A stretch of DNA of 64,000 nucleotides from Thiofilum flexile DSM 14609 (GTDB lineage Bacteria > Pseudomonadota > Gammaproteobacteria > Thiotrichales > Thiotrichaceae). The notes under the pieces were generated by a model. It had not been told where the DNA came from and did no database searches. It saw nothing but the letters and a program-made list of their open reading frames with translations. Location: the NCBI RefSeq assembly GCF_000380185.1, contig NZ_KB904780.1, positions 1 to 64,000 of the forward strand. The letters run 5' to 3'. Below, piece after piece: positions 41,074-43,269 of the stretch. Positions within the stretch are counted from its first letter, which is position 1. The number at the start of each line of letters is the position of its first letter. A program made the position numbers and the translations under genes.

Positions 41074-41829
41074 TCAAGCTGCATTTTGTACAGTAGCTAC
41101 AGGCTGATAATGGTCAGTATCAAAGGGTTTAAAACCGTCAACCCATACACAACGCAACTCGCATTGCAACATAAATTGTAATGGTGCATCCACATTCACT
41201 CTAGCTACAGAAAGTTGCACCTGATCCACTCCAGCACTCTTTAGTAGCTTATTAAAATCTTCCACTAGAAAGTTAGGACAGTAGCCCACCACCTCTAAGG
41301 GATTATCAGTTCTAATAGCTAATGCGTCAGGGTTATGCAAATTTTGTACATCTCGCATTAGATAAAGTCTATCACTCGCCTTTAAGCTTTTTAGGCGACC
41401 ATCATAATGCTGCGGAATATGGCGCAAACCATGAGCAAAGAAACGAACTCTGTAGTAACCATCCTGATTTTCTGGGCAGGGAAATAGTTGTAAATCGTCT
41501 GTAGCTCTACCACCTCCTGATAACTCCAACTCCATCATATCATTAGTAGTATTAGGGTCTAAACCTAACCACCCCAAATACTCCTTATACTCAGGACGCG
41601 ACTTGGTAAGCAGTCGGTTTTTAAAGGTTGGAAAAAGCTGTTCAGACACATAGGTCTTACCAAACTCTCGTAATGCACCGAAAGGCAAAAACTCCCCTCT
41701 ATTATGAGCATGTTGAGCTTCTTGGGTATAGTAAAACTCATAGCGACTATTAGCATAAGTAAGTCTACCCACAGGCAACCACCTACGGCTAACGGGGTTT
41801 TGCCAGAATAATAGTAAAGGTTTACTCAT
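41074..41829 (-). CDS. HipA N-subdomain fused to HIRAN domain
   Basis: A 251-residue protein in two parts. Residues 1-118 resemble the N-terminal subdomain of HipA kinases (HipS-like): LLLFWQNPVSRRWLPVGRLTY, YEFYYT, then LFPTFKNRLLTKSRPEYKEY and LELSGGGRATDDLQLFP. These recall the FFxNLLPEG and gG...DA positions in HipA. Residues 124-198 fit a HIRAN domain: RVRFFAHGL, LYLMRDVQNLHNPDALAIR, then VGYCPNFLVEDFNKLL. HIRAN domains bind single-stranded DNA 3' ends in HLTF. The C-terminal 50 residues are beta-rich. It starts 3 bases after the kinase stop, so the two proteins probably form a complex. Function is unknown. Confidence 0.75.
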   Translation of the reverse strand: MSKPLLLFWQNPVSRRWLPVGRLTYANSRYEFYYTQEAQHAHNRGEFLPFGALREFGKTYVSEQLFPTFKNRLLTKSRPEYKEYLGWLGLDPNTTNDMMELELSGGGRATDDLQLFPCPENQDGYYRVRFFAHGLRHIPQHYDGRLKSLKASDRLYLMRDVQNLHNPDALAIRTDNPLEVVGYCPNFLVEDFNKLLKSAGVDQVQLSVARVNVDAPLQFMLQCELRCVWVDGFKPFDTDHYQPVATVQNAA

Positions 41830-41832
41830 GGG

Positions 41833-42753
41833 CTAAGCTCTCATACCTAGTAAGGTTCTTTTGTTTTCCTGCAAGTATTGTACAGTAAAGTCTATGGTAG
41901 CCTGACTTAACCAACCAATAGGAAACTGATCAAAAATAGTGAAAATCTGATCAGCTGTTATCGACTCTAATTGATCAAACCAATTCCTCATAACTTTGCC
42001 TTTCTTGGCTAACATCATTGCTTGATTCAAGGCTTCCATCGTACCTAATCGCCTACCATCATTAGCAAAGAATGGGGTTTTAGCTTTAGCTGTGTAGGCT
42101 TGTAGATTATAGCCTTTATCGTTGGTAAGAAGCCGCTTCCCTCGTTCTGTGTCGGTCATTCGGCAGGCTAAACTAGATGCATGGTCATAAGAAGGAGATA
42201 GATACAAAGAAAATCTTTCATTTTTATGAGCCAGAATAATGCCCCAATTTTCATCATGACGATCTTGATTACCAATCCAAGCATCGAATAATAAATAAGC
42301 AATAAATAACTCTGTAATACCTGATACTTTGAAGGGACTACCCCAATCATCAGGCAAGCTTACAGAACCATTTTCAAGCATAGTAATGAAATTAATAACA
42401 GTACTGAGTTTATATTGTCGTAATCTAAAACGGTTTTCTCGATCATACTCAGAGGCATAGACTTTAGCCAAAAGCTCATTACCATGAACTAAATATAAAG
42501 CTTTAGCAGTAAGGTTATAACTAACAACTGCCTGTTTTCCCTTAAAAGAGGCTAGATCATAGGTGGCACAAGGAATTCCTAGTAATTTTGCCAACTCGCA
42601 AGCCGCTTTTTCAGACCAGTTTTCACCTGTATTAGGCCTACCAAATTTGCATAAATGTTTTTCCCCTTCAGGGGTGACGAACCAGAACTTGGATTTTGTC
42701 CCTAATTGCTCCAGTTCATCAGCCTGGGTAATCTCTATAACGGGATAGAACAC
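41833..42753 (-). CDS. HipA-like Ser/Thr kinase core (toxin-type kinase)
   Basis: A 306-residue protein corresponding to the HipA kinase core without the usual N-terminal subdomain. K36 (HLCKFGRP) is the likely ATP lysine and E48 the helix-C partner. The catalytic loop GNQDRHDENW holds D164, R165, H166 and N169. The metal-binding D190 lies in SPSYDHASSLA. All catalytic residues are present, so the enzyme should be active. HipA kinases phosphorylate tRNA synthetases and stop growth. GTG start with AGGAG 6 bases upstream. No HipB-type helix-turn-helix antitoxin gene is adjacent. The missing N-subdomain is in the next gene. Confidence 0.82.
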   Translation of the reverse strand: MFYPVIEITQADELEQLGTKSKFWFVTPEGEKHLCKFGRPNTGENWSEKAACELAKLLGIPCATYDLASFKGKQAVVSYNLTAKALYLVHGNELLAKVYASEYDRENRFRLRQYKLSTVINFITMLENGSVSLPDDWGSPFKVSGITELFIAYLLFDAWIGNQDRHDENWGIILAHKNERFSLYLSPSYDHASSLACRMTDTERGKRLLTNDKGYNLQAYTAKAKTPFFANDGRRLGTMEALNQAMMLAKKGKVMRNWFDQLESITADQIFTIFDQFPIGWLSQATIDFTVQYLQENKRTLLGMRA

Positions 42754-42857: not shown

Positions 42858-43067
42858 CTACTTACTCAATATGCTACAAAATGGCTGAAAAGTAACATGA
42901 TCTAGAGAGTTCAGAGAGTCTAAATCACCATTATTAAAACGCCATGACTTATAGCCGGTGGGTTTGACCACTAGGTACAGACTTGCATCATCACTAAGGC
43001 TGTATTCCTTCTCTTTAGGTTTTAAGCTCTTAAGTATTGAATCTGTTAGTTTTTTATGCGTTTTCAT
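42858..43067 (-). pseudogene. truncated P4-type integrase (N-terminal arm-binding remnant)
   Basis: Residues 1-45 (KLTDSILKSLKPKEKEYSL, LYLVVKPTGYKSWRFN) match the N-terminal DUF4102/arm-binding domain of P4-family tyrosine recombinases. The match stops abruptly after WRFN. The remaining ~24 residues are unrelated, and the catalytic domain with the RHRY residues is absent. The frame begins ~125 bases downstream of the tRNA-Met 3' end and reads away from it. That is the normal layout for an element integrated at a tRNA. It is a decayed attachment-side relic. Confidence 0.75.
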
Positions 43068-43192: not shown

Positions 43193-43269
43193 TGGTGGCT
43201 ACGGTTGGATTCGAACCTACGACCCCAGCATTATGAGTGCTGTGCTCTAACCGACTGAGCTACGTAGCC
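43193..43269 (-). tRNA. tRNA-Met (CAU), elongator
   Basis: The minus strand reads a 77-base cloverleaf with CCA encoded: acceptor GGCTACG, D-arm AGCTCAGTCGGTTAGAGC, anticodon loop CTCATAA with CAU, and T-loop GGTTCGAATC. It closely matches E. coli elongator tRNA-Met rather than the initiator, which would have a C1:A72 mismatch and GGG:CCC anticodon stem. It appears to be the integration site of the degraded element downstream. Confidence 0.95.

What the first reader, a model, noticed from the sequence alone, without database searches (positions are those of the whole stretch)
41074..42753. Split HipA kinase whose N-subdomain is fused to a HIRAN domain
The kinase gene keeps every HipA catalytic residue (K36, D164/R165/H166/N169, D190) but lacks the N-terminal subdomain. 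That subdomain appears at the front of the next gene, 3 bases downstream, followed by a HIRAN domain. In the known HipBST system a separate HipS (N-subdomain) inhibits HipT. Here the HipS-like part carries a HIRAN module, which in HLTF recognises single-stranded DNA 3' ends. A working hypothesis is a kinase toxin held by a HIRAN-bearing antitoxin that releases it when damaged, replicating or invading DNA exposes 3' ends, as a DNA-damage or phage-sensing growth arrest. I am not aware of a characterised system with this composition.
Basis: partly seen in the sequence, partly recalled or inferred. Interest (0 to 1): 0.8.

Follow-up and report, generated by a model that had tools for sequence, protein, structure and literature searches.

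The report
hipIN kinase–HIRAN toxin-antitoxin-like pair
This is another copy of a two-gene module described in 2021 (hipIN, a HipA-type kinase with a partner that carries its missing lid plus a DNA-end-binding domain); it is not new, but its relatives sit in the anti-phage slots of prophages, including E. coli P2-like prophages, where the proposed phage-triggered growth arrest can be tested.

Summary
A 306-aa HipA_C kinase (42753-41833, minus) lacks HipA's N-subdomain, and the next gene, 3 bp downstream (41829-41074), encodes that subdomain followed by HIRAN. A confident model of the partner matches HipS (Z 11-12) and the HLTF HIRAN domain (Z 10).

The claim that no such system is known is wrong. 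Gerdes et al. 2021 named this arrangement hipIN (HipI kinase, HipN = HipS-like + HIRAN) and proposed the same DNA-end/phage-sensing idea. PADLOC lists the pair as PDC-M03 (E 9e-98 and 5e-85). I found no functional test of it.

What I add: coupling is near absolute (67 of 67 viral-contig kinase loci have the partner next door). Relatives occupy known defence slots: the P2 gpA-gpQ hotspot in three E. coli prophages examined, integrase-proximal sites, and neighbours such as SIR2-HerA, Septu and PD-Lambda-1. The window copy is an insertion at tRNA-Met beside an integrase stump, absent from sampled relatives. Its HIRAN has lost three charged positions, two aligned with HLTF DNA-contact residues, so end-sensing is weakest for this copy.

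Verdict: new member of a known kind; the mechanism is plausible but unproven.

The parts
41833..42753 (-). HipI-type Ser/Thr kinase (PDC-M03A), 306 aa, no N-subdomain-1
   Evidence: HipA_C E=1.5e-10; PDC-M03A E=9.3e-98; invariant catalytic residues; model matches CtkA Z 26.4 and HipT Z 20
41074..41829 (-). HipN-type partner (PDC-M03B), 251 aa
   Evidence: PDC-M03B E=5.4e-85; model pLDDT 89.3
41470..41829 (-). HipS-like domain (residues 1-120)
   Evidence: VIA-align Z 11.8/11.1 to HipS of L. pneumophila and E. coli, Z 9.7 to HipA N-terminal domain
41107..41466 (-). HIRAN domain (residues 122-241); N166, N186 and M220 replace D, R/K and R/K kept by about 90% of relatives
   Evidence: Pfam HIRAN E=5.5e-8; HLTF HIRAN Z about 10; conservation
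42858..43067 (-). N-terminal stump (69 aa) of an integrase, remnant of a mobile island
   Evidence: NF007246 integrase-domain match E=2.5e-5, residues 3-45 on profile 4-46 of 413
43193..43269 (-). tRNA-Met (CAT), the insertion site
   Evidence: ARAGORN; relatives have tRNA-Met followed closely by the ilv gene or carry other inserts

Best explanation
The locus is a hipIN (PDC-M03) module acquired with a mobile island at tRNA-Met. HipI is an active HipA-type Ser/Thr kinase (inferred from residues and fold). The HipS-like half of HipN supplies the missing N-subdomain and most likely caps and inhibits the kinase, as HipS does HipT (inferred from fold and obligate pairing). The HIRAN half most likely binds DNA and couples foreign or replicating phage DNA to release of the kinase. 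The freed kinase would phosphorylate a host target, probably a translation factor such as an aminoacyl-tRNA synthetase, and arrest growth, so the module acts as an abortive-infection device carried by prophages and islands. Shown: anatomy, membership, coupling, mobile/defence context. Inferred: inhibition, trigger, target, phage protection. In this copy the trigger is probably not canonical 3'-end recognition.
For: Pair matches PDC-M03A/B and the published hipIN anatomy. 67 of 67 kinase loci in IMG/VR, found with kinase patterns only, have HipN directly downstream in the same order; all 9 genome loci do too. HipS and HIRAN folds. Kinase fold with HipT, HipA and CtkA. Catalytic residues invariant. 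E. coli P2-like prophages carry it between gpA and gpQ, the defence hotspot defined in PMC9122126; one copy is beside SIR2-HerA. Others are beside integrases in Vibrio and C. difficile phages and in prophage contigs, or beside Septu PtuA, PD-Lambda-1, a type II methylase and HsdR. tRNA-Met insertion in the window.
Against: No toxicity, neutralisation, DNA-binding or phage test was found in the held library. The fused-chain model had pTM 0.68, so docking of the HipS-like domain on the kinase is not settled. The window HIRAN lost three conserved charges. Rad5 HIRAN shows that the domain need not read 3' ends. The kinase's nearest solved relative is CtkA rather than HipT, so the target cannot be read from HipT.
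Confidence: 0.55

Rival explanations
1. hipIN is mainly a stabilisation (addiction) module: HipN is a labile antitoxin, and loss of the island or prophage frees the kinase. HIRAN only tethers the complex to DNA or aids autoregulation, since no HTH protein is present.
For: Carried by prophages, plasmids and islands. No HipB-like HTH gene lies next to the pair in the window.
Against: Recurrent placement in defence hotspots beside defence genes fits defence better. In this window the element has decayed to a stump while hipIN stays intact.
Confidence: 0.2
2. hipIN works as superinfection exclusion or prophage regulation triggered by a phage protein that binds HipN, not by DNA ends. HIRAN binds DNA non-specifically or has become a protein-binding fold.
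For: Several non-P2 copies lie next to integrases. 3'-end specificity is not universal in HIRAN domains. The window copy lost conserved charges.
Against: Most relatives keep the N..D..A motif, the position-186 R/K and the position-220 R/K, which suggests that a nucleic-acid surface is maintained in the family.
Confidence: 0.2
3. The window copy is a decaying relic: genes still open, but the HIRAN sensor impaired and the island inactive, so it does nothing specific now.
For: Integrase reduced to 69 aa; HIRAN D166N, R/K186N, R/K220M, L222Q; absent from all sampled same-family genomes.
Against: Both ORFs are full length, the kinase keeps every invariant residue, and the HipS-like half deviates at only 2 of 38 conserved positions.
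Confidence: 0.15

Closest known systems
hipIN modules (HipI kinase + HipN), Gerdes, Baerentsen and Brodersen 2021, PMC8262856
   Same: Short kinase (279-321 aa range for the small kinases) without N-subdomain-1, downstream partner with HipS-like then HIRAN domain, same phage/DNA-end hypothesis
   Different: Only sequence-level differences: the window HIRAN lacks the conserved Asp and two basic residues; here located as a tRNA-Met insertion
PADLOC PDC-M03 (phage defence candidate)
   Same: Both proteins match the two component profiles over nearly full length
   Different: A computational candidate; no mechanism attached in the library
HipBST (HipT kinase inhibited by HipS)
   Same: Kinase core without N-subdomain plus separate HipS-fold partner
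   Different: Gene order kinase first, no HipB, HIRAN fused to the HipS-like part; HipS Trp65 equivalent not established
HipL kinases
   Same: Same three domains in the same order, kinase-HipS-HIRAN
   Different: One polypeptide in HipL; two genes here (in frame, separated by TAG and one codon)
HLTF/Rad5 HIRAN domain
   Same: Fold (Z about 10) and aligned N..D..A motif
   Different: No helicase; D at HLTF 94 position is N and K113 position is N in this copy; binding untested
CtkA of H. pylori
   Same: Closest solved kinase fold (Z 26.4, 271 residues, 21% identity)
   Different: No HipS-HIRAN partner was examined here; described as a proinflammatory kinase in its PDB title

Membership tests
hipIN (HipI-HipN) | Short HipA-homologous kinase lacking N-subdomain-1, with core motifs | tested here: met
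   306 aa, HipA_C, catalytic residues invariant, fold matches HipT/HipA core
hipIN (HipI-HipN) | Downstream gene with N-terminal HipS-like domain | tested here: met
   Residues 2-119 match HipS Z 11-12
hipIN (HipI-HipN) | C-terminal HIRAN domain in the same partner | tested here: met
   Pfam E=5.5e-8, HLTF Z about 10
[quoted passage not shown]
   T19 and S21 in GTKSK; T/S at position 19 in 36 of 37 sequences
hipIN (HipI-HipN) | Placement of kinase in clade XI, HipI subclade | not tested
   Published tree sequences were not at hand; PDC-M03A profile match used instead
hipIN (HipI-HipN) | HIRAN DNA-contact motifs retained | tested here: inconclusive
   N163 and A169 kept, aromatic positions are His; D166N, R/K186N, R/K220M lost
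PDC-M03 (PADLOC) | Both component profiles match side by side | tested here: met
   E=9.3e-98 and 5.4e-85
HipBST | hipB-hipS-hipT gene order with HTH HipB | tested here: not met
   Kinase first, no HTH gene in the pair; upstream are an integrase stump and tRNA
[quoted passage not shown]
   No residue-level superposition was possible
HipL | Kinase, HipS-like and HIRAN in one chain | tested here: not met
   TAG stop and separate ATG between the two ORFs
Type II toxin-antitoxin | Toxicity of one protein neutralised by the other | not testable with these tools
   Needs a bench experiment
Anti-phage defence system | Protection against phage | not testable with these tools
   Context supports it; no assay

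The most novel reading that the evidence does not exclude
hipIN is a widespread prophage-borne immune switch in which a HIRAN domain senses phage DNA ends or replication intermediates and unlocks a HipA-type kinase, the first DNA-end-gated kinase toxin; copies such as this one have shifted to a different trigger after losing the end-reading residues.
Probability: 0.3. Interest if true: 0.65.

Novelty: new member of a known kind. Interest (0 to 1): 0.36.

Why it matters
The family was predicted in 2021 and listed as a defence candidate, but no functional test of it was found in the held library. Finding near-identical copies in 21 complete E. coli genomes, with all three prophages examined carrying it in the gpA-gpQ slot where known anti-phage systems sit, makes the hypothesis directly testable in laboratory E. 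coli with standard phages. If true, it would give a kinase-based abortive-infection system with a DNA-binding release switch.

Tried and rejected
Novel composition: rejected, since hipIN and PDC-M03 are on record. HipBST membership: rejected by gene order and absence of HipB. Sequence-only detection of the HipS-like part failed or was weak (spurious crystallin hits; hhalign with HipA probability 9%, E 0.0036, in the expected register); structure was needed. Direct viral scan with the single HipN sequence found nothing, and alignment A1 was too diverse; the kinase alignment worked. Reading through the TAG to fold kinase and HipN as one chain gave good domains but pTM 0.68, so no conclusion on docking; several mixed alignments misplaced the kinase C-terminus and were not used. 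No distal att repeat of the tRNA was found. Promoter and terminator scans were at chance level. The phylum-wide kinase-profile search mostly returned other, weaker Hip kinases. BFVD search was uninformative for the pair.

Full report
Observation. Pfam calls HipA_C (E=1.5e-10) and HIRAN (E=5.5e-8, residues 126-203) above cut-off.

Structure. The partner's AlphaFold model from an alignment of 10 sequences has pLDDT 89.3 and pTM 0.84. VIA-align places residues 2-119 on HipS from L. pneumophila (7vkb_B, Z 11.8, rmsd 2.0 A, 100 of 102 residues) and E. coli (7ab3_E, Z 11.1), and on the HipA N-terminal domain (7czo, Z 9.7); residues 122-241 fall on HLTF HIRAN (Z about 10) and on lp_0118 (Z 13.1). The kinase half of a fused-chain model matches CtkA (Z 26.4), HipT (Z 18-20) and HipA (Z 16-19). 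The fused chain came from reading the intervening TAG as Gln, which joins two intact in-frame genes; its pTM of 0.68 does not settle whether the HipS-like domain docks on the kinase.

Prior knowledge. Gerdes et al. [quoted passage not shown] They suggest that HIRAN may recognise DNA ends of invading phages or replication intermediates and activate the kinase. PADLOC holds the pair as PDC-M03A/B, which this locus matches at E=9.3e-98 and 5.4e-85. A 2025 paper (PMC11706625) reports HIRAN-HipI operons next to diDNase genes and notes the predicted defence role. Searches of the held library found no experimental test; subscription papers are not covered.

Coupling. A genome scan with the kinase gave 9 loci, all with HipN downstream. 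A viral-contig scan with kinase patterns alone gave 67 loci, and all 67 have HipN immediately downstream in the same order. These fall in 19 HipN clusters at 80% identity, one holding 31 members. A class-wide search with HipN found it in 14 of 369 genomes, the window's own included; of the nine other strong hits, eight have the kinase alongside and L022 lacks a detectable one. Kinases in L010, L019, L100 and L122 appear split by frameshifts.

Context elsewhere. The largest cluster lies beside P2-type portal and terminase genes and occurs at 99% identity or more in 21 of 5,426 complete E. coli genomes. Three prophages inspected carry hipIN next to portal gene Q, on the gpA side, which is the P2 defence hotspot defined by Rousset et al. 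(PMC9122126; that main text names neither HipA nor HIRAN). In one of them SIR2 and HerA defence genes share the slot. Vibrio corticovirus-like phages, a C. difficile phage and several prophage contigs carry hipIN next to the integrase. Other neighbours are Septu PtuA, PD-Lambda-1, a type II methyltransferase and a type I restriction subunit. I chose neighbours to test by hand and did not measure a genome-wide enrichment.

Context here. The pair lies between tRNA-Met (43269-43193) with a 69-aa integrase stump (43067-42858) on one side and an acetolactate-synthase-like gene (my reading of the 578-aa ORF) on the other. In relatives of the same family the distance from tRNA-Met to that gene is about 150 bp in L037, about 0.4 kb in L038 and L045, and 1 kb with other cargo in L040. 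None of the 35 sampled same-family genomes has the kinase. GC dips to 37-42% across the insert against about 45% around it. The simplest reading is a decayed tRNA-integrated island that left hipIN behind.

The HIRAN of this copy. Aligned to HLTF through the family profile, the family keeps N163, D166 (36 of 40), A169, R/K186 (35 of 40) and R/K220 (36 of 40). The window has N166, N186 and M220, while the HipS-like half deviates at only 2 of 38 conserved positions. Seven of the 40 sequences deviate as much or more in HIRAN overall, so the count alone is not exceptional; what stands out is that three of the window's four changes remove a charge. By that alignment positions 166 and 186 correspond to HLTF D94 and K113; that these residues contact the 3' end is from memory, since the primary paper was not held. 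HLTF stacking residues Y72 and Y93 (PMC4666394) appear to correspond to H137 and H165; the Y72 match is inferred because the profile alignment did not cover it. Rad5 HIRAN domains bind DNA without 3'-OH preference (PMC7804152). So 3'-end sensing is a reasonable idea for the family but the weakest point for this copy.

Mechanism. Shown: two-gene anatomy, family membership, obligate pairing, mobile and defence-associated setting. Inferred: active kinase, inhibition by the HipS-like domain, HIRAN as sensor or tether, host target, phage protection. I put 0.55 on the defence-type toxin-antitoxin reading as a whole, and about 0.3 on the specific DNA-end trigger as a general feature of the family.

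Judgement. The added value is its location in prophage defence slots, including laboratory-tractable E. coli, and the diverged HIRAN of this copy.

Noticed in passing
window:42858-43269: Integrase N-terminal stump next to tRNA-Met marks a decayed island; the same tRNA site in relatives is empty or carries other cargo.
   Followed up: yes
L127:9001-10652, L159:4001-5652, L160:4001-5652: E. coli P2-like prophages carry hipIN next to portal gene Q, in the gpA-gpQ hotspot; L159 also holds SIR2-HerA in the same slot.
   Followed up: partly
L027, L028, L029: Vibrio corticovirus-like phages and C. difficile phage phiCDKH02 carry hipIN directly beside the integrase.
   Followed up: partly
window:41833-42753: The best solved match of the HipI kinase model is H. 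pylori CtkA (Z 26.4) rather than HipT or HipA, suggesting that CtkA is close to the small Hip kinases.
   Followed up: no
L010, L019, L100, L122: The kinase ORF is split by apparent frameshifts while HipN stays intact, compatible with selection against the kinase or with sequencing errors.
   Followed up: no
window:41830-41835: Unlike the eight genome contigs relatives L002-L009, whose frames I compared, kinase and HipN here are in the same frame, separated only by TAG and one codon, as if a HipL-type fusion were one stop codon away.
   Followed up: partly
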